17,864 nt of DNA from positions 1 to 17,864 of the forward strand of contig JASHVH010000376.1 in NCBI GenBank assembly GCA_030039575.1. The letters are read 5' to 3'. How positions within the stretch are numbered: the stretch's first letter is position 1; every line of letters begins with the position of its first letter. Positions 1,427-16,295 of this stretch are shown here, in pieces. A program made the translations under genes and the position numbers. Below the pieces are notes generated by a model. The model worked only from the letters and a program-made list of their open reading frames with translations, did not search any database and was not told where the DNA came from. Source of the stretch: Acidimicrobiales bacterium (GTDB taxonomy: Bacteria > Actinomycetota > Acidimicrobiia > Acidimicrobiales > Palsa-688).

Positions 1427-1528
1427 AACGACCAACGACAGAGCGCGATCGCCCGGCCACAGATAAGTGAGTGGGAGCCTATCCCCCACAAGCGGTCCTC
1501 CCCGGCAATCAGTCTCCCTATACCGGGG

Positions 1529-1551
1529 GAACTTGCGGGCTGAAGTCTGTT
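1529..1551 (+). promoter_or_regulatory. Promoter-like box upstream of the first ECF sigma gene
   Basis: GAACTT (1529-1534), ten bases, then GTCTGTT (1545-1551), ending 45 bases before the ATG at 1597. It shares the GAAyT half, a CTGA in the spacer and the TGTT end with three sites at 12761-12783, 13657-13679 and 13873-13895, with identical spacing and a similar distance to the start codon. The first half, read as GGAACTT, also resembles a common ECF -35 element. This is the weakest of the four sites. Promoter function is inferred from position and similarity only. Confidence 0.35.
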
Positions 1552-1596
1552 ACACCTGCTGGCGCGCGACCAATTAAGTGCATGGGGAGGGAGGCG

Positions 1597-2235
1597 ATGG
1601 ACCGTGAGCTGTTCGCTCGTCCCGGGGACCCCCAAGCGTTCGCGCTGTTCTATCGCCGTCACGTGGACCGCATCGTCCGGTTCGCTGCGCAGCGAGTTCC
1701 CGACCCGGCAGATGCTGCGGACGTGGCCGCGGCGACTTTCGTGGTGGCGCTGCGTGGAGCCGAGCACTACGACCCACGGCGAGGAGAACCCGAAGCGTGG
1801 CTGATCGGCATTGCGGCCCGCCTCATCGCCAACGACCGAAGACGGAAAGTCCGAGAAGCGCTGGCCCTGGCGAAGCTCGAGAGCCGAGCCTTGCTCCAAG
1901 ACGACGACATCGAACGCCTCGTCCAGCTGATGGACAACTCAGCCCTTGTCCGGAGCACGTATGAGGCCCTCTGCCATCTACCACCGCAAGCCAGGGAAGC
2001 GGTCCTCCTTGTGGGGCCCGAAGGGCTGACCGAGGCCGAGGCCGCGGCTGTCGTAGGTACCAGCACCGTCGCTTTCCGTATGCGCCTCTCGCGCGCACGT
2101 CGTCGCCTGGCTCGGCTGATAGCTGACGAGGCTCCCCCCCGTGCGTCAGCCGCCCGTGAGGGACCATCGCGCCTACAGCGAAAGTCAGGGCCAGAAAGGG
2201 CGAGCGGGCCAATCATGACGGAGGTAGCCCAATGA
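1597..2235 (+). CDS. ECF-type RNA polymerase sigma factor
   Basis: This is a group 4 (extracytoplasmic function) sigma factor that directs RNA polymerase to a dedicated promoter set. Region 2 spans roughly residues 8-77, with FALFYRRHVDRIVRFAAQRV, the DAADVAAATFVVAL helix and the AWLIGIAARLIANDRRR promoter-opening helix. Region 4 spans about 115-172, with LPPQAREAVLL and the helix-turn-helix LTEAEAAAVVGTSTVAFRMR. The start at 1597 is chosen because a GGAGG-rich tract (1584-1594) precedes it and region 2 begins right after it. An upstream in-frame GTG at 1471 would add 42 residues unlike any sigma domain. The 212-residue product ends in an Arg/Pro-rich tail. Its last codons overlap the start of the membrane propeller gene (ATGA at 2232-2235), so the two are probably translationally coupled. 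An anti-sigma partnership is an inference. Confidence 0.88.
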   Translation: MDRELFARPGDPQAFALFYRRHVDRIVRFAAQRVPDPADAADVAAATFVVALRGAEHYDPRRGEPEAWLIGIAARLIANDRRRKVREALALAKLESRALLQDDDIERLVQLMDNSALVRSTYEALCHLPPQAREAVLLVGPEGLTEAEAAAVVGTSTVAFRMRLSRARRRLARLIADEAPPRASAAREGPSRLQRKSGPERASGPIMTEVAQ

Positions 2236-2270
2236 CGGCCGATCATGACCGAGGCCACCCAATGACCACA
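2211..2270 (+). repeat. Imperfect 30-bp tandem duplication at the sigma/propeller gene junction
   Basis: Two adjacent 30-base units (2211-2240 and 2241-2270) match at roughly three quarters of positions, sharing ATCATGAC, GAGG and CCCAATGAC in register. Each unit contains an ATGA in the same place (2232 and 2262), in the same reading frame, giving two candidate starts for the propeller gene. Only the first has a strong ribosome-binding site (GGAGGT at 2220-2225, six bases before the ATG); the second unit carries the weaker GAGGCC. It looks like an old local duplication of the translation-coupling site. Confidence 0.6.
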
Positions 2271-3587
2271 GCGTCCCCCCCGGCTGATGAGCGTTTCGAA
2301 GACAGGCTGCTCGACGCCTTGCTCGACTGTTTCGAAGACGTCCGCGGCGACTGTGGGGCCCCTTCGGGTACGCTTCCGGCGCCCGGGGCTCACCGAGGCC
2401 GGATCGCGCTGACGGCGCTGGCGGTCGCCGCGGCGGGCCTCGGCGTGGCTCTCGCCCTCAATTTCGTTTCCAGCTCGACCGGCGCTACGCACGGGTTGCG
2501 TTGGGCGCTCGCGGGGTACGTGGGCACCCAGTGGGAGGGCACCCCAGGCCAAGGGCTCACCGTTTCCGGTCCTTATCACCAAGACTTGACCTGCTCGAGC
2601 GCGACCACCTGCTACGTGGAAGGACCGGCCAACGCCGGCCAGGGCGCCGAAGTCGAGGCGACCTACAACGCAGGCAAGACGTGGCACCCAGCGGGCGTGG
2701 CGGGCGCCACCCCGTTGAGCAACGTCTCCTGCCCGAGCGGTCGCGTGTGCGCCCTGTTGGAGGGCGGGACGACCAATAAACCGCTGTTCGTTGAGACCAC
2801 CGACGGCGGGACCACGTGGCTGGCGCGTCCGGCCCCGATCTCGCTTTTTCCCTCTGTCCGGGACGCCACGTCGGGGGCCACATCGTCCGGGCCGGCCGAG
2901 ACAATGACGAGCGTGTCCTGTCGAAGCTCGTCGACCTGCAGCGTCCTCGCGTGGAGCGGCAATGTGCGGAGCTCCAAACCGAGTGGCCGGAGTGCTGCGT
3001 CCGTCACAACGGACGGGGGGCGGACCTGGTCGTCGCCTGTCCCGGCCTTCAAGCCCTCTTGGGAGCTGCAGTGCTTTGCCAACGGCAAGTGCCTGGCCGC
3101 AGGGCCTTCGGGAGCCGCTTACAGCACCGACGACGGCCTCACATGGTCGCTTTCTTCGGGGTGGCCTATTCAAGCGGCGTCCTACTTCTCCTGCGCGACC
3201 GCGGCGAGGTGCACGGCTTTGTCCGTCCCGCCCGGCGGCAGTGCGGAGTCGTTGCTCGTCTCCAGTGACGGGGGCGAGTCTTGGTCGGCCCTAAGGACCA
3301 GCGGGCTCCCCACGGGGGTGCTATTCACCGGCTTGGCCTGCCCGACCAGCTCTGATTGTTGGCTGTCGGGCAACAGCGTCCAGGGGCAGTTCTCGGGCCA
3401 GGGCGCAGTGTTGCTGTCGTCGAACAACGGCGGCCGGACCTGGGGCGCCAGTTTCCTCCCTCGACGCACCGGCATCGTGTTCGCGGTCTTTTGCCCGGAC
3501 CGGGGCACGTGTTTCGCATTGGCGGCCAAGCAACCCACGGGATCGTCGCCTGCAACGTCCCCGGCGCTCGTGCTATTGGTCCACTAA
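2232..3587 (+). CDS. Membrane-anchored Asp-box (YCF48/BNR-like) seven-blade propeller, possible sigma-factor partner
   Basis: This 451-residue protein has a short N-terminal segment (about 1-57, acidic, predicted cytoplasmic). One transmembrane helix (about 58-79, rich in Ala/Leu/Val) follows, then a large exported domain. The domain repeats the Asp-box signature S/T-x-D-x-G-x-T-W: NAGKTW, TDGGTTW, TDGGRTW, TDDGLTW, SDGGESW and NNGGRTW. Between them lie seven CX5C pairs, the first at Cys121/Cys127 and the last at Cys421/Cys427, probably one disulfide per blade. Such propellers (sialidase/YCF48/VPS10-like folds) bind ligands or proteins; no catalytic sialidase set is evident. It begins in an ATGA overlap with the sigma gene behind a good GGAGGT site, and the lipoprotein gene follows with no gap. 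A role as membrane sensor or anti-sigma factor is inferred from topology and coupling. No recognisable zinc anti-sigma (HxxxCxxC) motif is present. Confidence 0.85.
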   Translation: MTADHDRGHPMTTASPPADERFEDRLLDALLDCFEDVRGDCGAPSGTLPAPGAHRGRIALTALAVAAAGLGVALALNFVSSSTGATHGLRWALAGYVGTQWEGTPGQGLTVSGPYHQDLTCSSATTCYVEGPANAGQGAEVEATYNAGKTWHPAGVAGATPLSNVSCPSGRVCALLEGGTTNKPLFVETTDGGTTWLARPAPISLFPSVRDATSGATSSGPAETMTSVSCRSSSTCSVLAWSGNVRSSKPSGRSAASVTTDGGRTWSSPVPAFKPSWELQCFANGKCLAAGPSGAAYSTDDGLTWSLSSGWPIQAASYFSCATAARCTALSVPPGGSAESLLVSSDGGESWSALRTSGLPTGVLFTGLACPTSSDCWLSGNSVQGQFSGQGAVLLSSNNGGRTWGASFLPRRTGIVFAVFCPDRGTCFALAAKQPTGSSPATSPALVLLVH

Positions 3588-7657: not shown

Positions 7658-9616
7658 TCAGGACTGGTCGAAGACGGTGGCGAACGCCTCCTTATTAGCT
7701 GAAATGGTGGTCTTGACCTGCACCGTCGAGCTCGCGTAGAGGTTGTCAGCCTGGAGCCCAGTTTCCGCGGACCCGAACGGGTACCCGTTGATCACCGCAC
7801 TGGAGAAGACCACGGCGCCAAAGTTCGGTACGCCAGATGTCGAGCCAGGAACCGCTGGAAAATCGCCGGCCGTGATGCCCTCGCTCGTGCCGCCGCCGGC
7901 GCCGTTACTGGTGGCGATGAACCTGTGCGTCATGTCAATTACCGAGTCCGTCACTTTCGAGAGGCTCTGGGACACCGCGAACTCGATCGTGTCCCCGGGA
8001 TGGGCCACATCGCTTGGGATATTCCGTATGGCGCCATCTACTAGGAGTGACGGGTAGTAACGAGCCATGTGTTGCGGCGTGCAAGCGAGGTACAGACGAG
8101 CGTATGAGTTCACCGACGCTATGCCAACGCCGACGTAGATTGAGCTTCCCGCCGTTGGCGTGGACTTGCAGTTGAGCTGGGGCACGACAATATCGGCGCT
8201 CACCGCACCCGGTACCCCGATGTAGTTAGGGAAATTGTAGCCGGCGAAAACGGTGCTCTGAGTGGTGGTTACTGGCGCCGGCGCAGCAAGCGCGGCCCGC
8301 GTCGGCGCGTACGTTGCCATTGGTCCCGCCGGGGGCCCGAGCAGGTTCACCTTCACCGGCAGATCGCTCATTTTGTAGCTCCCGTCACCAAGCTGGCCGA
8401 AGTTGTTGCCACCCCAGGCGAACACAGTGCCGGCCGATGTCACTGCCAGGCTCTGTAGTTCGCCGACGGCGACGCCGCTCACCTTGGTGCCCGCGGGCAG
8501 CTTCACTTTTACCGGCACATCGCTGTTTGCCGTGCCGCCGTCACCGAGCTCGCCGTCCGCGTTGTGGCCCCAGGCGAACACCGCCCCACTCGAGGTAACT
8601 GCCAGGCTATGGCCGGGGCCGGCGACGTACTGTCCGACTCCGATCAGCGGGCCGCCGGCGGCGATGGCCTTCACTTTGGTGCCCGCTGGCAGCTTCACCT
8701 TTACCGGCATATCGGTCTTTGTCGTGCCACCGTCACCGAGCTCGCCGTCTGCGTTGTAGCCCCAGGCGAAGACGGCGCCGGTCGAGGTCAGCGCCAAGCT
8801 GTAGTAGCCCCCGGCGGCGATGGCGGTCACCTTCGTGCCCGCCGGCAACTTCACCTTCACTGGTACATCGGTGTTCACCGTGCCGCCGTCACCGAGCTCG
8901 CCGTCTGCATTGAAGCCCCACGCGTAGACCGCGCCGGTCGAAGTCAGCGCCAGGCTATGCAAGGCGCCGGCGGCGACCGCCGTCACCTTCGTTCCAGCTG
9001 GCAGGCTCACGTTGACTGGCACACCGCTGGACCCTCCCGTGCTGCCGTTGCCGAGCCCGCCGAAGAGGTCCAAGCCCCAGGCGAGCACCGCGCCGGTCGA
9101 AGTCACGGCCAGGCTGTGCCCTCCGCCGGCGGCGATGGCGGTCACCTTCGTGCCTGCGGGCAGGTCCACCCTCACCGGCACGTCGCTGTCCGTCGTGCCC
9201 CCGTCACCGAGCTCGCCATCATCGTTCTTGCCGCAGTTGAACACCGCTCCGGTCGAAGTCATCGCCATGCTGTGGGCGAAGCCGCCGGCGATCGCGGTCA
9301 CCTTGTTCCCGCCGAGCGACGTCACCTTGAGCGGCAGGTCGCTGCTATTTGTGTTCCCATAGCAAAGCTCGCCGGGTGTGTTCCAGCCCCACGCGAACAC
9401 CGCGCCGTTCGAGGTCAGCGCCAGGCTGTGGTACAAGCCGGCGGCGACCGCGGTTACCTTCACTGCCGAGGAAGCGGACGCTGACCGGGTTGTAGCCCCG
9501 GCCGTGCCCGTTAGCAAGAGGGCGGATCCGGGCCCAACGGAAGGCAACAGCGCCACTGCCATTGCCACCCCCATAGCACCGACTGTTGCCCTGCCCATTA
9601 GCCTCGTTAGTCCCAC
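7658..9616 (-). CDS. Secreted RCC1-repeat seven-blade propeller with a C-terminal G1-peptidase-like domain
   Basis: The GTG at 9616 is chosen because a near-perfect AAAGGAGGT (9622-9630) lies five bases before it; a GTG at 9658 would place that site inside the gene. The 652-residue protein starts with a signal peptide (hydrophobic core about 11-25, Ala-rich cut region near 40). Seven RCC1 repeats follow from about residue 54 to 430. Each runs like VTAIAAGGxHSLAVTSTGAV, then AWGxNxDGELGDGG, then VPVKVKLPAGTK. Repeat 6 carries an extra segment of about 12 residues. RCC1 repeats build seven-bladed propellers used for protein binding. The last 190 residues (from FAGYNF) contain a beta-rich domain with SSIYVGVGI, HPGDTIEF and FGAVVFSSAVING, resembling the eqolisin/G1 fold. 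The catalytic Gln position appears replaced. The propeller is certain, the C-terminal assignment tentative. Confidence 0.88.
   Translation of the reverse strand: MGLTRLMGRATVGAMGVAMAVALLPSVGPGSALLLTGTAGATTRSASASSAVKVTAVAAGLYHSLALTSNGAVFAWGWNTPGELCYGNTNSSDLPLKVTSLGGNKVTAIAGGFAHSMAMTSTGAVFNCGKNDDGELGDGGTTDSDVPVRVDLPAGTKVTAIAAGGGHSLAVTSTGAVLAWGLDLFGGLGNGSTGGSSGVPVNVSLPAGTKVTAVAAGALHSLALTSTGAVYAWGFNADGELGDGGTVNTDVPVKVKLPAGTKVTAIAAGGYYSLALTSTGAVFAWGYNADGELGDGGTTKTDMPVKVKLPAGTKVKAIAAGGPLIGVGQYVAGPGHSLAVTSSGAVFAWGHNADGELGDGGTANSDVPVKVKLPAGTKVSGVAVGELQSLAVTSAGTVFAWGGNNFGQLGDGSYKMSDLPVKVNLLGPPAGPMATYAPTRAALAAPAPVTTTQSTVFAGYNFPNYIGVPGAVSADIVVPQLNCKSTPTAGSSIYVGVGIASVNSYARLYLACTPQHMARYYPSLLVDGAIRNIPSDVAHPGDTIEFAVSQSLSKVTDSVIDMTHRFIATSNGAGGGTSEGITAGDFPAVPGSTSGVPNFGAVVFSSAVINGYPFGSAETGLQADNLYASSTVQVKTTISANKEAFATVFDQS
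8341..9457 (-). repeat. Seven tandem RCC1-coding repeats of about 156 bp
   Basis: The DNA coding for the propeller is a direct-repeat array with a period of about 156 bases (52 residues). Middle units are the most alike, sharing long stretches around GAGCTCGCCGTC and CCAGGCTATG-type segments. One unit is longer by 36 bases. The similarity at DNA level suggests recent unit duplication or gene conversion, and such arrays can expand or contract. Confidence 0.8.
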
Positions 9617-9689
9617 AGCGGACCTCCTTTTATCGTGCCGGGCACCGACGCGCCGCACTGTTTGTCTGAGTCGGATCGTTCCAGCGCGC

Positions 9690-9846: not shown

Positions 9847-10585
9847 GTGGATGCCACCACAGATGGTGCAGCCGACCTAGGCGTCGACCGTTTGCGGGCC
9901 AAGCTGCTGGGGCCGTTCTCCGTTTCCCTCGGCGAAAGCGTGGCAGGCCCGTGGAAACGCCCGAGCGCGAGGCGCCTGTGCCAGCTGGTATTGGTCAGCC
10001 CCGGCCTCCATATCAGCCGTGAGGCGGCCCAGGAAGCACTGTTCCCTAACCTCGGCCAACCAGCCGCGACGCGAGAGCTCTACAAAGCGCTATCGATGGC
10101 CCGGGCGGCACTATCCTCTCTGCGCCCCGGGAGCCGGCCTGCTGAGAGCCGACCGCACCCACGTCTGGGTCGACCCTGCTCGCCCCCTGGAAGTCGACTT
10201 CGTCTTGCAGGCCGAGACTTTACGCCAGGCGCTCCTCACGGAACCGGGCACCGGTCGTGACAATTTGCTGTTGGCCGCGGTGGCGGAGAAAGGCACCCTG
10301 CTCGAAGGAGAACCGGTCGCCGAGTGGGCGGTGCGGGCCAGGGAGAAACTCGAGTGGTCTAGACAGGAAGCCCGGCTGGCACTGGCCCGGGACCGGGCCC
10401 GGGGGTTCGGGCGTTCGAGCCCCGAAGCGACCTGGGTGATAACGGGAGGGACCGGTTCCTACACGGGCCTTCAAGGGAGCGGCAACGCCGACGCCGATGC
10501 CGAGAACACTTTCCCTTGGATACAGCACAACTCCTGGGGCAACGTGTGGTGGACGGGGGGCGCGAACACCGGGGCCAGCAACTGA
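9847..10585 (+). pseudogene. Frameshifted SARP/BTAD transcriptional regulator fused to a foreign secreted-protein tail
   Basis: Bases 9847 to about 10125 encode the N-terminus of a SARP/AfsR-type regulator. The winged-helix start is LLGPFSVSLGESV, followed by ARRLCQLVLVSPGLHISREA and ELYKALSMARAALSSLRPG. The frame then breaks. From about 10132 the family continues one base out of phase with GAGLLRADRTHVWVDPARP and the BTAD helices (LEWSRQEARLALARDRARG). The slip is in the CCCCGGG run at 10125-10131, where one base too many explains it. After GRSSPEA (near 10430) the family sequence stops. A dirigent/barrel-like secreted-protein ending follows, with ITGGTGSYTGLQGSG and WIQHNSWGNVWW. The repaired reading would be 245 residues, with the BTAD domain cut short. 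The most likely history is a deletion joining two genes plus a frameshift. The frameshift alone could be a sequencing error. Confidence 0.75.
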
Positions 10586-10641: not shown

Positions 10642-11598
10642 TCACCCCCCGATTTGCAGCACCACTCGGCCCTGGGTGTGCCGCGCGCCGACGTACTCTA
10701 TGGCTTCGCGGGCTCGGTCGAGGTCGAACTCCGCCTCGATCGGCATCCGCAGCCTCCCGGCGGAGACGAGCCCGGCGACCTCTTGGAGCCGCGTGGAGTC
10801 GACTGTCGCACCAAAGGACTGGACCTCGACCCCGTCGGCGGCCGGAGGTGGCTGAGCCCCGAAAGCGATGAAGATGGCGCGGCCGCCCTTACGCACCAGC
10901 TTGAGCACCTGGTCGCGCACCTCGTTCCCAGTGCCGTCAAAGAGCAAATCGACCCCCCTCGGGGCGGCGCTGCGTAGTTGCTCGATGAAATCGGGGAGGT
11001 GGTAGTCAACGGCGATCTCCGCGCCCAGGTCGCGAACATAACCGTGGTTGCGCGCGCTGGCGACGGCGATAACCCGCGCCCCTGCGTCTCTCGCGATCTG
11101 GACCGCGGCGCTACCGACGCCACCAGACGCCGCGGTGACGAGCACCGTTTCACCAGCCTGCACCTTGGCGCGGTCGATGAGACCCTCATATGCAGTGCCG
11201 GCGCTGATCACGAGGCCGGCGGCTTCGGGAAAGCCGAGGTTGTCCGGCATCACCGCCGCTTTCTCCACGCTCAAGGCGGCCAGTTCAGCGAAGCCACCGC
11301 CGCCCGACCCCCACAAGGAGCCGAACACGCGGTCGCCGGCGCCAAACCCGTGTGCTCCCACCTTGACCGTCCCGGCCACCTCGAAACCGGGGATTCGAGG
11401 CAGGGGCGCGTCGCCGCCAGGGATCCCCGTCGGTACGACCTTGCCGACCGTCGAGCTCAGGATGCCGACGTCCCAGATCCCAACGCCGGCGGCGTGTGTT
11501 AGTAGGAGAATATGGTCAGCGTCCGGAGCGGGGTCCGGGCGCTCACCGACCTGAACGTTTTGCGGTCCGCCGAAGGCGTCGTAGTACGCGGCTCGCAT
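10642..11598 (-). CDS. Medium-chain dehydrogenase/reductase, quinone oxidoreductase-like
   Basis: This is an NAD(P)H-dependent oxidoreductase of the zinc-free MDR branch (quinone reductase/zeta-crystallin type), which reduces quinones or activated alkenes in the cytosol. The N-terminal GroES-like domain (about 1-125) begins MRAAYYDAFGGPQNV and includes the PGFEVAGTV and GAGDRVFG motifs. The Rossmann part has the nucleotide loop AASGGVGSAAVQ at about 156-167 and GAEIAVDY further on. The C-terminal DLDRAREAIEY and GRVVLQI match the family end. The start at 11598 has a GGAGG a few bases upstream and matches the family N-terminus; a longer frame from 11694 adds unrelated residues. At 318 residues it is of normal size. 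It follows the SnoaL-fused sigma gene on the same strand after 122 bases, so co-transcription is possible. Confidence 0.9.
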   Translation of the reverse strand: MRAAYYDAFGGPQNVQVGERPDPAPDADHILLLTHAAGVGIWDVGILSSTVGKVVPTGIPGGDAPLPRIPGFEVAGTVKVGAHGFGAGDRVFGSLWGSGGGGFAELAALSVEKAAVMPDNLGFPEAAGLVISAGTAYEGLIDRAKVQAGETVLVTAASGGVGSAAVQIARDAGARVIAVASARNHGYVRDLGAEIAVDYHLPDFIEQLRSAAPRGVDLLFDGTGNEVRDQVLKLVRKGGRAIFIAFGAQPPPAADGVEVQSFGATVDSTRLQEVAGLVSAGRLRMPIEAEFDLDRAREAIEYVGARHTQGRVVLQIGG

Positions 11599-11720: not shown

Positions 11721-12710
11721 CTAATCGCTCGGAAGGGCTCGAGGTAGGCCAAAGCGGGCCAGAACGCCCCGGTCGCCAAAGCGCGTAATGGCGGAAACAC
11801 CTTCTCGGGCGACGGTTAACACCAGCATCCCGCTAGCTCGGTGAACACCCGAACCTCGGTCGGGAAGGTAGTAACCGAAGGCAGGCTGATTGTTCGCCCC
11901 TGTCGGGACGAGCTTCAGGGCCTTGCCCCAAAAGCCCAGGCTTCGAAGGAATTCGCCAATCGTTCGCGGCCCTCGGAACTCCACGGGCTCGGGGGGCATC
12001 GAAAAAACCGAGTCCTCAGTGAGAAGCGCAACGACGGCGTCCAGGTCGCCGCGTTGAAAGGCCTCGACGAAGCGGTCCACGACCTGAGCTTCGACGTCCG
12101 AACGGGGGAGGGTCGTACGTTCCGGATCTTTGGTGGGCCGAAAGCCGGCTCGAGCGCGCTGTAAGGCGCTGTTGACCGATGCCGCTGTGCTATCAAGAAT
12201 GTGGGCAGTCTCCGAAGGCGAGAACCCGAGGACATCTCGCAACACGAGGGCGGAGCGTTGCTGGGTCGGCAGGTGCTGCAGGCCCGCCACGAACGAAAGC
12301 GCGATCGACTCCCGGGTCTCGTAGCGGGCCTCGGGCCCGGGTGTCACGTTGTCGATCAAGGCATCGGGGTACGGTTCGAGCCACCAGGGCTCGTCCGATG
12401 GCGAGGCTCCGAGGAACTGAGACGTGAAGTCTGCTCCTGTCCCCTGCGGCCGCCGGGAGGTGTCTCTAAGATAGTTCAGGCAACGGTTGGTGGCGATGCG
12501 GTAGAGCCATGCTCGTAGCGATCGGCCATCGAACCTTTCGAGGGATTGCCACGCAGCTAAGAGAGCCTCCTGAAGTACGTCTTCAGCGTCTTGGACCGAG
12601 CCGAGCATCCGGTAGCAGTGCACATGAAGTTCCCGGCGATAGGGACCGATCAACTCCTCAAAGGCCTTGCCGTCACCTGCCTGGGCCCGGGCGAGCCTCT
12701 CCTCGTTCAT
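11721..12710 (-). CDS. ECF sigma factor with C-terminal SnoaL-like domain (SigX5/TIGR02960-type)
   Basis: This is an RNA polymerase sigma factor of the ECF branch that carries its own C-terminal ligand-pocket domain. Region 2 (about 5-85) contains YRRELHVHCYRMLGSVQDAE, LQEALLAAW and LRAWLYRIATNRCLNYL. Region 4 (about 140-195) contains LPTQQRSALVLRDVLGFS and the recognition helix STAASVNSALQRARAG. The remainder (about 205-320) is a SnoaL/NTF2-like domain with VVDRFVEAFQRGDLDAVVAL and FRGPRTIGEFL. In such sigma factors the extra domain usually replaces a separate anti-sigma factor. The ATG at 12710 has GAGGAGG eight bases upstream. A promoter-like box lies at 12761-12783 and is shared with two neighbouring genes, so autoregulation is plausible. 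The family match is strong, and the signal sensed is unknown. Confidence 0.92.
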   Translation of the reverse strand: MNEERLARAQAGDGKAFEELIGPYRRELHVHCYRMLGSVQDAEDVLQEALLAAWQSLERFDGRSLRAWLYRIATNRCLNYLRDTSRRPQGTGADFTSQFLGASPSDEPWWLEPYPDALIDNVTPGPEARYETRESIALSFVAGLQHLPTQQRSALVLRDVLGFSPSETAHILDSTAASVNSALQRARAGFRPTKDPERTTLPRSDVEAQVVDRFVEAFQRGDLDAVVALLTEDSVFSMPPEPVEFRGPRTIGEFLRSLGFWGKALKLVPTGANNQPAFGYYLPDRGSGVHRASGMLVLTVAREGVSAITRFGDRGVLARFGLPRALPSD

Positions 12711-12760
12711 ATCTCACGCCTCCTCTCGGGACGGGCCTTCCCAAGTACGCCAAAGAATTG

Positions 12761-12783
12761 CACACGAATCAGGAGCCGAGTTC
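12761..12783 (-). promoter_or_regulatory. Promoter-like box upstream of the SnoaL-fused sigma gene
   Basis: Read on the - strand: GAACTC (12783-12778), ten bases ending CTCCTGAT, then TCGTGTG (12767-12761), 50 bases before the ATG at 12710. It shares an uninterrupted TCGGCTCCTGAT with the site upstream of the 238-residue gene. Identical internal spacing in three intergenic regions supports a common sigma or regulator target. Promoter identity is inferred. Confidence 0.55.
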
Positions 12784-12896
12784 GTCGTCAACCCTACGCC
12801 GGGTTGCTACCGAAGCACCTTAGGAAAATCACAGGGGTGCAGCGAGGCCCCTCCGAGTTCTCCACCGCCACCCGCGCCGCCGCCGTGCCCGTCCCG

Positions 12897-13613
12897 TCAC
12901 CGAATGGTGATCGCGCCCATATCGATTGCGACTAGCGGCAGCTCTGCCACGAACTCGTGACCCTCCTGCAAGGCGTAACTTCGTCGCGTGGTCGGGATCA
13001 CGATGCCATCGACGTCGCGGTAGTCGCCGGCATGGAGTTGAGCCGGGCCCCCGCCGAGGATGTCGATCGTGAAGTCATGACGGCGGAGCAGTCCGTCTGG
13101 GCCAAAGCAGAAGATCTGTTCGCGCGTGTGGGTTTTGATGTGATCAGGGAAGGTGGCCTTCAGCCGCCGCCAGGTTTCACCGTCGATCTCGATCGGGGAC
13201 ATCTCTTCGGTGGTGAAACCGGGCCAGGTGAAGAGGAACGGTGTGTTCAGATATGTCCACAAGGCCTCTCCGGTGAAATAGGCGAGGTGTAGGTCGTCCC
13301 ACGGCGTCTCGAGCTGATGTCCCTGGAAAGACCTCTCCGGGTCGTCCCGGGAACCGATGACCCGGGCGTCGCCTCGCTGTACAACGACTCGGCCGGGTTG
13401 GAAGACGGTCCGTTTGTCCTGACCGACGAAGTCCATCGTCAGCAACTGGCGATGGGTGTCGACCTCGAAACGAATGTCCTTGAGCGCGTCACCCTTGTCC
13501 TTGAGATGCCAAAAGGCTCCGGTGATGGATGCTTCGACAGTGACCGACCTGACCTGCTGCCAGCGGTCCGCACCACCGTGCGCGGCGACAGCCTCCTCGA
13601 GTAGCTCGTTCAT
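12897..13613 (-). CDS. Conserved-looking 238-residue protein of unknown function
   Basis: The ATG at 13613 is preceded by GGAGGAG at a good distance; an in-frame ATG at 13661 would sit over the promoter-like box. The product has a short helical start (NELLEEAVAAHGGADRW), then a long run of beta-strand-like segments. Landmarks are ITGAFWHLKDKGDALKDIRF, HQLETPWDDLHLAYFTGEA, DGETWRRLKATFPDHIKTH and FGPDGLLRRHDFTIDILGGG. This layout recalls LolA/lipoprotein-carrier-like single-sheet folds, but there is no signal peptide and I cannot assign a function. Similar proteins are, in my recollection, frequent hypotheticals in Actinobacteria and Proteobacteria. It is upstream of the SnoaL-fused sigma gene on the same strand (186-base gap) and divergent from the MFS/SDR pair. 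It shares a promoter-like box with both. Confidence 0.82.
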   Translation of the reverse strand: MNELLEEAVAAHGGADRWQQVRSVTVEASITGAFWHLKDKGDALKDIRFEVDTHRQLLTMDFVGQDKRTVFQPGRVVVQRGDARVIGSRDDPERSFQGHQLETPWDDLHLAYFTGEALWTYLNTPFLFTWPGFTTEEMSPIEIDGETWRRLKATFPDHIKTHTREQIFCFGPDGLLRRHDFTIDILGGGPAQLHAGDYRDVDGIVIPTTRRSYALQEGHEFVAELPLVAIDMGAITIR

Positions 13614-13656
13614 TTCTCCTCCTGGGCGGTTGGGAATTGTTACAGCTAGACAGTCG

Positions 13657-13679
13657 AACACCGATCAGGAGCCGAATTC
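13657..13679 (-). promoter_or_regulatory. Promoter-like box upstream of the 238-residue gene
   Basis: Read on the - strand: GAATTC (13679-13674), ten bases GGCTCCTGAT, then CGGTGTT (13663-13657), 43 bases before the ATG at 13613. The spacer is identical to that of the sigma-gene box, and the two end elements are identical to those of the MFS-gene box. It is the best link between the three sites. Confidence 0.6.
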
Positions 13680-13872
13680 ATCGGTCGATCTTCAGAAACG
13701 AAGGTGTTACAGCGTTAGGCCCGTCATTTGAACTCCGTCCCGGTCCTCGGACCTGCGGGGTGAGGGGCCGGCGCCCGAAACGGTGCCGTCAGAGTGGCGA
13801 GGGTCCCGCTGGCGGGGCGGATAGGCGGAGTTCGTCGGCTTGCAACACCATAGGGCCCCTCAATTCATCGCT

Positions 13873-13895
13873 GAATTCCCCGGTCGATCGGTGTT
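13873..13895 (+). promoter_or_regulatory. Promoter-like box upstream of the MFS/SDR genes
   Basis: GAATTC (13873-13878), ten bases, then CGGTGTT (13889-13895), 46 bases before the ATG at 13942. Both ends match the box at 13657-13679 exactly, as do a preceding T and the spacer's last three bases (GAT). The rest of the spacer differs, which suggests the two end elements are the recognised parts. Confidence 0.55.
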
Positions 13896-13941
13896 TCATC
13901 CCTCGTAGAGACCATCCAGCAACTAGAGCAGGAGAAACCTG

Positions 13942-15489
13942 ATGACGTGTTTTCAGTCAGAAGATATAACCGTCGCCCCAAAGCCGTCCGGGTCGACTGT
14001 CCCATTCGAAGCGACAAGAGTGCCGGCTTCCGATGGTGGCCCCAGCCAAGGTGAAGTTGGCCGTTGGCGGGCCTTTGCCCTGTTGGTGGTGGCGTTCTTT
14101 ATGACGGTGGTGGATCTGACGATCGTCAACGTCGCCCTGCCGACGATCGGGGTCAAGCTCCACTTCCCAGAGATTGACCTGCAATGGGTCGTCACTGCCT
14201 ATGGCCTCACGTTCGGCGGGTTCCTGCTCCTTGGCGGCCGCGCCGCGGATCTGCTGGGTCGCCGGCGTTTGCTGATGATCGGGCTGGCGATCTTCACCGC
14301 CGCATCGCTCGCTTGCGGCCTGGCCGCCTCGGACTCGCTCCTCATCGTGATGCGCGCGGCTCAAGGGTTCGGCGCAGCACTCGTCTTACCCTCGGCCCTC
14401 TCCATCGTGATGAACATGTTCCCCGAAGGCGCGGAACGCAACAAGGCGCTCGGGATCTGGGGTGCCGTCGGAGCCCTCGGGGCCACCGTAGGCGTGATGG
14501 CCGGCGGCCTCCTCACTCGCTACGCCGGGTGGGAGTACATCTTTTATCTGAACGTCCCTGTCGGGGCCCTCGCGCTCGGCCTGGCACCGAGGGTGGTGCC
14601 CGAGAGCCGGCTCCGCACCGGCTCCCGTCGTTTCGACGCACTCGGAGCGACCTCTATCACCGGCGCTCTTGTCCTCTTTGTCTACGCGATCTCACAGGCG
14701 CCCCAGGTCGGCTGGGGGACAGCGCGCACGGTCGCGATGTTGAGCGCGGCTGCGGCACTGGTGGTGACGTTCCTCGTCGTCGAGTCTCGAGCCGAGGCAC
14801 CGCTCCTTCCCCTGCGGCTGTTCCGCCTGAGCACCGTGGCCGGGTCCAACGCCGTTGGCTTCCTCCTGGGGGCGAGTTTCTTTGCCTTCATCTTCGTGGG
14901 CACGTTGTACATGCAACAGGTGCTCGGCTACTCGGCTTTGAAGACGGGGTTCGCCTGGCTGGCGGCTTCGCTCACCTCGCTGACCTTTGCGGGCCTGTCC
15001 CAAACGCTGGTCACCAAGACCTCGGCGAAGGCTGTCATGGCCATCGGTATGGCACTGATCGGAACAGGGATCTTGTGGGCGACGCAGGTCCCGAGCGATG
15101 GGAACTTCTGGCACAACCTGGCGGGGCCGTTCTTTGTCGGCGGTGCCGGCACGGCGTTCGCCTTCATCCCCGTCTCGATCGGGGCGCTTGCCGGTGTCAC
15201 AGAGCGAGATGGCGGTGTCGCCTCTGGGCTACTGAACACATCTCAGCAGCTCGGCGGTGCGATCGGCGTGGCCATTGCTTCGACCGTTGCGGCCTCCCGC
15301 TTCCATCTCCTGGTCCACCATGGTTATGGGACGGCTTCGGCTCTCACCGGGGGTTTCCAGTGGGCGCTGTGGGTCTGCGGGGTTACGGGCCTGGCCGCTG
15401 TCCCGGTCACCCTTGTACTGGTCCGGCGGGCCGAGATGTCGAAGGCAATCGCGCAGAGTCGCGACGCCTCGGTTCCCACAGTCGCCTAG
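13942..15489 (+). CDS. MFS drug exporter, DHA2 (EmrB/QacA, 14-TM) type
   Basis: This is a proton-driven multidrug exporter of the major facilitator superfamily in the cytoplasmic membrane. A soluble head of about 45 residues precedes the first helix (FALLVVAFFMTVVDLTIVNV), which holds the D-x-T-I-V-N-V-A-L-P signature of DHA2 proteins. WVVTAYGLTFGG and motif A (GGRAADLLGRRR, about 98-109) follow. Motif C-like Gly-rich GAVGALGATVGVMAGG lies in helix 5. Later helices include the SGLLNTSQQLGGAIGVA motif typical of EmrB/QacA members. The 515 residues and about 14 hydrophobic segments fit the family. The start has AGGAGA six bases upstream. It is the first gene of a probable pair with the SDR gene (56-base gap) and carries the shared promoter-like box. 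The exported compound is unknown. Confidence 0.93.
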   Translation: MTCFQSEDITVAPKPSGSTVPFEATRVPASDGGPSQGEVGRWRAFALLVVAFFMTVVDLTIVNVALPTIGVKLHFPEIDLQWVVTAYGLTFGGFLLLGGRAADLLGRRRLLMIGLAIFTAASLACGLAASDSLLIVMRAAQGFGAALVLPSALSIVMNMFPEGAERNKALGIWGAVGALGATVGVMAGGLLTRYAGWEYIFYLNVPVGALALGLAPRVVPESRLRTGSRRFDALGATSITGALVLFVYAISQAPQVGWGTARTVAMLSAAAALVVTFLVVESRAEAPLLPLRLFRLSTVAGSNAVGFLLGASFFAFIFVGTLYMQQVLGYSALKTGFAWLAASLTSLTFAGLSQTLVTKTSAKAVMAIGMALIGTGILWATQVPSDGNFWHNLAGPFFVGGAGTAFAFIPVSIGALAGVTERDGGVASGLLNTSQQLGGAIGVAIASTVAASRFHLLVHHGYGTASALTGGFQWALWVCGVTGLAAVPVTLVLVRRAEMSKAIAQSRDASVPTVA

Positions 15490-15545: not shown

Positions 15546-16295
15546 ATGACTACTCGTGAACTCTCAGGAACTACGGCCGTCGTCACAGGAACCAGTCGGG
15601 GGTTCGGGCGAGCAATGGCCGTTTCTCTCGCATCGCATGGAGCGCATGTCGTCGGCGTGGCTCGTAACGAAGATCTGTTGAACGAGTTGAAAGACGAGCT
15701 GGGCTCCAGTTTCACTCCGGAGGTGGCCGACATTCGGGATCCCGGGTTGCCGCAACGGCTTCTGTCGACGTACTCGCCTCAGACACTTGTGCTCAACGCG
15801 GGCGCCACTCCAATGACCGTTCCGCTGGATCAGCAGACGTGGGAGAGTTTCAGTGAGAACTGGGACCACGACGTTCGCCACGTCTTCCAATTCCTCCGCG
15901 AGACGCTGCTCAACCCGCTTGAGCCGGGGTCAGTTGTCGTGAGCCTCTCGAGCGGCGCCGCCCTTCGTGGGTCACCCCTGAGCGGTGGCTATGCCGGCGC
16001 CAAAGCCACCATCAGGTTCATCAGCGCTTACGCCTCCGCCGAGGCCAAATCGCGGTCCTTGGAGTTGAGGTTCACCGCCATCCTGCCCCAGCTCACTCCG
16101 GCCACCAAACTCGGTGCGGCGGGAGTGGCGGCGTATGCCGAACGCGCAGGCCTCCCCGCCGCAGAGTTCGTCGACCAACTCGGTGGGGCCCTCACCCCGG
16201 AGTTCGTGGCCGAGACCGTCGCCGGCGTCGTGACCGACAACGGTTACTCAGCGGACGCGTACTTGCTGACAGCGACCGAACTTCGGCCCCTGTGA
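15546..16295 (+). CDS. Short-chain dehydrogenase/reductase (SDR)
   Basis: This is an NAD(P)-dependent classical SDR that oxidises or reduces an alcohol or ketone substrate in the cytosol. It shows the cofactor loop TGTSRGFG at 14-21, the Asp-Ile pair after the third strand (VADIRD) and NAG at 84-86. The active-site Ser lies in VVSLSSGAALRG, and YAGAK gives Tyr149 and Lys153. The Arg after the cofactor-loop Ser suggests, but does not prove, NADP preference. At 249 residues it is of standard length. The ATG at 15546 is preceded by an AAAAAGGAAAA stretch. It follows the exporter gene by 56 bases and is likely co-transcribed. Its stop is only 13 bases from the stop of the convergent surface-protein gene, with no terminator between. 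Confidence 0.92.
   Translation: MTTRELSGTTAVVTGTSRGFGRAMAVSLASHGAHVVGVARNEDLLNELKDELGSSFTPEVADIRDPGLPQRLLSTYSPQTLVLNAGATPMTVPLDQQTWESFSENWDHDVRHVFQFLRETLLNPLEPGSVVVSLSSGAALRGSPLSGGYAGAKATIRFISAYASAEAKSRSLELRFTAILPQLTPATKLGAAGVAAYAERAGLPAAEFVDQLGGALTPEFVAETVAGVVTDNGYSADAYLLTATELRPL

What the first reader, a model, noticed from the sequence alone, without database searches (positions are those of the whole stretch)
12761..13895. Shared promoter-like box links an ECF sigma gene, an unknown-function gene and an exporter/SDR pair
GAAyTC, ten bases, then yCGTGTG or CGGTGTT occurs at 12761-12783 (-), 13657-13679 (-) and 13873-13895 (+), each ending 43-50 bases before a start codon. Two copies also share the spacer GGCTCCTGAT. 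Exact spacing with correct orientation at three starts is unlikely by chance. It suggests a local regulon run by the SnoaL-fused sigma factor, including its own gene. I do not recognise it as a published ECF consensus. The 10-base gap is shorter than a usual -35/-10 spacer, so the box may be one composite element or a repressor site.
Basis: partly seen in the sequence, partly recalled or inferred. Interest (0 to 1): 0.7.

Follow-up and report, generated by a model that had tools for sequence, protein, structure and literature searches.

The report
Back-to-back promoters of an ECF56 sigma
The repeated box is very probably the DNA address read by an actinobacterial sigma factor of the SigG/ECF56 type to switch on a neighbouring exporter gene and, in most close relatives examined, its own gene.

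Summary
The three boxes exist where reported. Two (13657-, 13873+) are strong; the one before the sigma gene (12761-) is weak. A matrix trained on 18 orthologous sigma loci, window excluded, scores the window far above chance and reveals a better fourth site, 13844-13870(-), and a degenerate fifth. The window thus holds two units, 13657-13708 and 13844-13895, each two opposed promoters whose -35s overlap by 2 bp. Of 24 testable loci with sigma identity of at least 55%, 22 carry the box before sigma. In 15 of 18 training loci an opposed box is present, facing an MFS gene in 13. Best reading: autoregulated ECF56 promoters controlling an exporter/SDR operon; here the sigma gene's own box is decayed and sigma may depend on read-through. 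New variant of a known kind: the -10 is GTT instead of GTC, in a clade with a one-residue shorter specificity loop.

The parts
13844..13870 (-).
   Evidence: Matrix score 32.3 against random maximum 14.9; exact match in the genome scan
13869..13895 (+).
   Evidence: Score 25.7; gap -2
13657..13683 (-).
   Evidence: Score 26.6; exact match in the genome scan
13682..13708 (+). Degenerate opposed half of dyad unit 1, facing the exporter
   Evidence: Score 16.2, 18.1 with the second matrix; gap -2
12761..12787 (-).
   Evidence: Score 2.9, 4.9 with the second matrix; 39-nt repeat shared with 13645-13683
11721..12710 (-). ECF sigma factor with C-terminal SnoaL_2 domain
   Evidence: Pfam Sigma70_r2, Sigma70_r4_2, SnoaL_2; above the cut-offs of TIGR02960 and PRK08241
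12897..13613 (-). Unknown gene, predicted LolA/LppX-like fold
   Evidence: No Pfam or NCBIfam family; model pLDDT 84.4; Foldseek best E 6e-9 to a DUF1329 protein and 1e-8 to a LolA-superfamily protein, TM about 0.5
13942..15489 (+). DHA2-type MFS exporter, presumed main target
   Evidence: PF07690; TIGR00711 above cut-off
15546..16295 (+). SDR oxidoreductase behind the exporter
   Evidence: PF00106

Best explanation
The boxes are promoters read by RNA polymerase carrying the local ECF56/SigG-type sigma factor (or its 61%-identical paralogue in the same genome). CGATGA is the -35, GTT the core of the -10, 18 bases lie between. In relatives two such promoters sit back to back between the sigma gene and an exporter (MFS) or SDR gene, so active sigma raises the exporter operon and its own synthesis. 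In this genome the sigma gene's own box is decayed and the LolA-fold gene lies between the divergent promoters and the sigma gene, so sigma is probably fed by read-through from the promoters at 13657 and 13844. Shown here: sequence, spacing, orientation, conservation, gene linkage. Inferred: that this sigma binds the boxes, that it activates, the read-through, and that the fused SnoaL domain senses a compound which the exporter and reductases remove.
For: Matrix trained without the window finds four window sites above the random maximum; a second matrix from 11 loci gives the same order. In 602,538 bases of 103 loci there are 40 sites of score 14 or more: 23 point at sigma within 112 bp (22 loci) and 10 point away within 150 bp. 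Box present in 22 of 24 testable loci with sigma identity of at least 55%; 18 of the 22 were training loci, the other 4 (L002, L081, L082, L083) were not. CGATGA-N18-GT[CT] occurs before sigma in 34 of 83 loci, other spacings from 12 to 24 in at most 5. Same -35 and spacing as the SigG motif built on one mapped start. An opposed box is present where a divergent MFS/SDR lies and absent in L027 and L032, where none was identified. No terminator-like site on the minus strand at 12600-14050.
Against: No binding, expression or start-site data. M. tuberculosis SigG and S. tsukubaensis SigG1 are reported as not autoregulated, and the SigG1 motif is different. Only 14 of 58 more distant homologues carry the N18 motif. 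Opposed N18 matches also occur on the other strand in 6 loci. The window's own sigma box is weak. L016 has a divergent MFS gene without an opposed half at the trained copy, and L023 has the opposed box but only a short unidentified divergent ORF. The genome is 68% complete, so the regulon may be undercounted.
Confidence: 0.82

Rival explanations
1. The nearly palindromic pair (GATTGAGCGATGAATC centre with AACACC and GGTGTT arms) is the operator of a dimeric repressor or activator controlling the divergent genes; sigma linkage is incidental.
For: The pair is symmetric in 15 of 18 training loci; remnants of the left half of the centre are seen by eye in L002 and L060, where no opposed -10 is scored.
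Against: Single, directional copies stand before sigma in L027, L032 and L002; the half-site distance within a box is fixed while the distance between boxes is -2 or +8/+9; the motif matches a SigG promoter. I did not search systematically for a conserved regulator gene beside these loci.
Confidence: 0.1
2. The boxes are read by another sigma factor of the cell, such as the paralogue at C45 or one of the two other TIGR02960 members, rather than by the local one.
For: The genome has four TIGR02960 members above cut-off; the C45 paralogue has the same box before it and the same 7-residue loop.
Against: The box follows the orthologues of the local sigma from genome to genome; the members at C109 and C22 have loops of 8 and 9 residues.
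Confidence: 0.06
3. Chance resemblance picked out by an attentive reader.
Against: A matrix built without the window finds 13657, 13869 and 13844 above anything in 3.0 million simulated positions.
Confidence: 0.02

Closest known systems
M. tuberculosis SigG promoter, CGATGA(N18)GTCNNTA (PMC3776920, passages seen)
   Same: -35 CGATGA and the 18-base distance; regulon proposed to serve detoxification (glyoxalase-like Rv0887c and Rv0911)
   Different: -10 here is GTT, not GTC; here linked to an MFS exporter and SDR in back-to-back pairs; SigG is reported as not autoregulated
S. tsukubaensis SigG1-RsfG, ECF56 (PMC7730460, passages seen)
   Same: sigma2-sigma4-SnoaL_2 architecture; an MFS transporter gene among the ChIP-seq targets
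   Different: Proposed motif CCG-N17-CCCTCC; a co-transcribed anti-sigma protein RsfG; no binding site at its own promoter
ECF41 sigma factors with their COE genes (PMC3426412, passages seen)
   Same: SnoaL/NTF2-like extension, no obvious anti-sigma gene, a neighbouring enzyme gene as target, box often before both divergent genes
   Different: Promoter TGTCACA-N16-CGTC; partner genes are carboxymuconolactone decarboxylases, oxidoreductases or epimerases; protein models for SigJ-type factors fall below cut-off here

Membership tests
ECF56 / SigG-type sigma factors | Sigma2 and sigma4 with a C-terminal SnoaL_2 domain | tested here: met
   Pfam hits above cut-off
ECF56 / SigG-type sigma factors | Curated family models TIGR02960 and PRK08241 (that these correspond to ECF56/SigG is my recollection) | tested here: met
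   315.7 bits (cut-off 264.75) and 382.7 bits (cut-off 240)
ECF56 / SigG-type sigma factors | Placement by the ECF classification's own models or tree | not tested
   Those models are not among the tools
M. tuberculosis SigG-type promoter | -35 CGATGA with 18 bases to the -10 | tested here: met
   Exact at 13657 and 13844; one base off at 13869 (CGCTGA) and 12761 (CGACGA), spacing 18 in each
M. tuberculosis SigG-type promoter | -10 GTCNNTA | tested here: not met
   GTT at 13657, 13844 and 13869, GTG at 12761; so a variant, not a member in the strict sense
M. tuberculosis SigG-type promoter | Sigma-dependent mapped transcription start | not testable with these tools
   No expression data
ECF41 | SigJ-type protein models | tested here: not met
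   PRK09636 113.7 of 271 bits, TIGR02957 106.1 of 323.25 bits
ECF41 | Promoter TGTCACA-N16-CGTC | tested here: not met
   The window's boxes have CGATGA/CGCTGA/CGACGA and GTT/GTG (consensus)
Autoregulated ECF sigma locus | Sigma-type promoter directly before the sigma gene | tested here: inconclusive
   Present in 22 of 24 testable close orthologues; weak in the window; activity untested

The most novel reading that the evidence does not exclude
A clade of ECF56 sigma factors changed its -10 address from GTC to GTT together with the loss of one residue in the specificity loop, the loop that in SigH holds a flipped -10 base. It couples this with a back-to-back promoter whose two -35 elements overlap by 2 bp (or lie about one helical turn further apart), so two polymerases could hardly bind at once and each firing would choose between making more sigma and making the exporter: a built-in toggle between sensing and export.
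Probability: 0.3. Interest if true: 0.65.

Novelty: new variant of a known kind. Interest (0 to 1): 0.5.

Why it matters
Little promoter data turned up for ECF56 factors: the two members I found studied gave different motifs and no autoregulation. The conserved box gives a testable address for a whole clade, ties it to an exporter/SDR module that looks like detoxification, and supplies a natural experiment on how the specificity loop sets the -10 base. It also offers a simple divergent promoter in which sigma and exporter expression might compete.

Tried and rejected
My pattern counted the spacer wrongly and missed the sites. The L003 match overlaps, on the other strand, L003's own CGATGA-N18-GTC box; not a new target. 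Repressor operator, another sigma and chance: see rivals; ECF41: see membership test. Sigma-70-type promoters at 12600-14050: none. A viral-contig scan for the unknown gene found no relative. PADLOC gave nothing for the unknown or sigma protein. The unknown gene is rare near home: matches in 3 of 99 related genomes, the own one included and one of them weak.

What was left out of counts; 86 loci became 83 after dropping L080 (same contig as L012), L031 (no upstream sequence) and L017 (sigma hit begins where an SDR fragment ends, looks like a contig join); the 83 include the window itself (L001). One search used 84 (L080 and L031 dropped). L010 and L143 are the same contig as L015; L138 and L144-L150 with L153 re-fetch loci already held; not independent. 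L036-L049 are remote and were used only in the background scans. Searches listed more sigma matches than they laid as loci; I examined the 58 laid (L080-L137). Of 28 one-mismatch genome sites, one is the window's 13869 box, 16 were examined and 11 were not. Of 19 exact sites in 14 related genomes, 12 are at sigma loci and the contexts of 7 were not examined. The loop/-10 association follows one clade boundary and counts as one event. Of 75 plasmid records with the unknown gene, I looked at three.

Full report
What was checked. The window is the whole contig C555 of a genome of 3.83 Mb, 68% complete. The three boxes are at the stated places, 50, 43 and 46 bases from the start codons of the sigma, unknown and MFS genes.

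The genes. The sigma gene (11721-12710, minus) encodes sigma2, sigma4 and a SnoaL_2 domain and passes the cut-offs of TIGR02960 and PRK08241. The genome holds four TIGR02960 members above cut-off. One solved chain matches most of the protein (7qh5, residues 10-317, E 1e-56); in that alignment its loop between F and W has 8 residues. The unknown gene has no Pfam or NCBIfam hit but 3,445 homologues. Its model (37 sequences, best of five models pLDDT 84.4, the others 56.7-77.8) resembles LolA/LppX-type folds with TM-scores near 0.5. Three plasmid-borne homologues lie beside alkene reductases, SDRs, an alcohol dehydrogenase, an MFS transporter and a quinone oxidoreductase. The exporter is a DHA2-family MFS protein; the next gene is an SDR.

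The box in relatives. A scan of named genomes returned 38 loci, of which L012-L035 are ECF56-like. Their upstream regions show CGATGAATC, 12 bases, GGTGTT, N, CA. I built a matrix from 18 of them without the window and masked the spacer. In the window it scores 13844(-) 32.3, 13657(-) 26.6, 13869(+) 25.7, 13682(+) 16.2 and 12761(-) 2.9; the best of 2,999,565 simulated positions is 14.9. A second matrix from 11 loci of Streptomyces, Streptacidiphilus, Trebonia, Catenulispora and Streptosporangiaceae gives the same order, with 13682(+) just under its random maximum. In 602,538 bases of 103 loci the first matrix has 40 sites of 14 or more: 23 point at sigma with centres within 112 bp (22 loci), 10 point away within 150 bp, 7 lie elsewhere. 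Twenty-four loci with sigma identity of at least 55% are testable (L017, L031 and L080 dropped); 22 have the box, L018 and L035 do not. Eighteen of the 22 were training loci; the other four, L002, L081, L082 and L083, were not. In L018 the sigma gene follows the SDR gene, and a weak pair (scores 15.4 and 6.6, overlapping by 2 bp) precedes the SDR.

Identity of the box. The SigG motif of M. tuberculosis is CGATGA(N18)GTCNNTA, inferred from one mapped start and an alignment (PMC3776920, passages seen). The window's box is CGATGA-N18-GTT. In 83 loci (window included) CGATGA-N18-GT[CT] occurs before sigma in 34, any other spacing from 12 to 24 in at most 5, and spacing 18 on the opposite strand in 6. 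The 20 matches in the 25 loci above 55% identity are GTT, the 14 in the 58 more distant loci are GTC. The loop between the conserved F and W of sigma2 is 7 residues in 26 of 26 loci above 55% (window and L017 included), 8 in 57 and 9 in 1 of 58 others. In M. tuberculosis SigH this loop holds the flipped base T-9 of the -10 (PMC6411747, passages seen); that T-9 is the last base of SigH's GTT is my recollection. The association follows one clade boundary.

The back-to-back pair. In 10 of 18 training loci an opposed box (score 6 or more) overlaps the sigma-facing one by 2 bp; in 5 it lies 8-9 bp away, about one helical turn further; in 3 (L016, L027, L032) it is absent at the trained copy. A homologue of the MFS gene is divergent from sigma in 14 of the 18, at 68-77% identity in 12 and about 41% in 2. 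L024 faces an SDR, L023 a short unidentified ORF; for L027 and L032 I identified no divergent target, and they lack the opposed box. L081, L082 and L083 face an SDR; the opposed box is at gap -2 in L081 and L083 (scores 11.3 and 9.1), while in L082 it scores -2.5, by eye because of one extra spacer base. In L027 a second box stands before another MFS gene.

The window's layout. It holds two dyad units, 13657-13708 and 13844-13895, each with the 2-bp overlap. The unknown gene, which follows the SDR in L015 and is a broken remnant there in L012, here lies between the dyads and the sigma gene. The regions before sigma and unknown gene share a 39-nt repeat at 74% and a 14-nt repeat over the start codons, so the shared spacer is probably a trace of duplication. 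The sigma-side copy ends its -10 core in G. No terminator-like site was found on the minus strand at 12600-14050, so read-through into sigma is possible but unproven.

Regulon size. In the own genome the exact pattern CGATGA-N15-GGTGTT occurs three times, twice here and once before the 61% paralogue. With one mismatch allowed there are 31 matches against 9 for the reversed control. One of the 16 one-mismatch sites examined, C149:3089-3115, stands 64 bases before another SDR gene. In 14 related genomes 13 have an exact match; of 19 sites, against 2 control matches, 12 are at sigma loci.

Results against the reading. M. tuberculosis SigG and S. tsukubaensis SigG1 are reported as not autoregulated, and the SigG1 motif differs. 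Only 14 of 58 distant homologues have the motif. The window's sigma box is weak. Nothing here is experimental.

Literature. Searches for ECF56, ECF target promoters, SigG/Rv0182c, SigX5/TIGR02960, divergent ECF promoters, ECF41/SnoaL with MFS transporter, specificity loops, CGATGA/GGTGTT and SigG1/RsfG listed no paper that I recognised as describing this GTT-type box or the back-to-back arrangement. I saw listings, and passages of five papers (PMC7730460, PMC3776920, PMC8999054, PMC3426412, PMC6411747). Only open-licence papers are held, and supplementary files, where a published ECF56 motif could stand, were not seen.

Noticed in passing
window 10642-11598 (-): A zinc-type alcohol dehydrogenase/quinone reductase-like gene lies directly behind the sigma gene on the same strand; it would fit a detoxification theme but has no box of its own that I found.
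   Followed up: partly
window 1471-2235 (+) and 2232-3587 (+): A second ECF sigma gene overlaps the start of a gene with BNR/Asp-box repeats; possibly a sigma/membrane-anchored regulator pair.
   Followed up: no
window 9847-10585 (+): Two overlapping open frames (9847-10260 and 10019-10585) without Pfam hits look, by eye, like one regulator-type gene broken by a frameshift.
   Followed up: no
window 7658-9658 (-): A 666-residue protein with many RCC1 repeats, a family best known from eukaryotes (recalled).
   Followed up: no
L110, L084, L111 (upstream of sigma): Homologues at 51-54% identity have a similar but different element, CGCCCAGTY-N12-CGGTGTC (by eye), possibly an intermediate -10 type between GTC and GTT.
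   Followed up: no
L035, 5630-5656 (+): A strong box lies behind a sigma gene matching only residues 1-194, on a contig binned as Chloroflexota; perhaps a misbinned contig or a transferred, broken locus.
   Followed up: no
L060, 1501-1527 (G000:C149:3089-3115): A near-match box 64 bases before another SDR gene elsewhere in the same genome: candidate distant target.
   Followed up: partly
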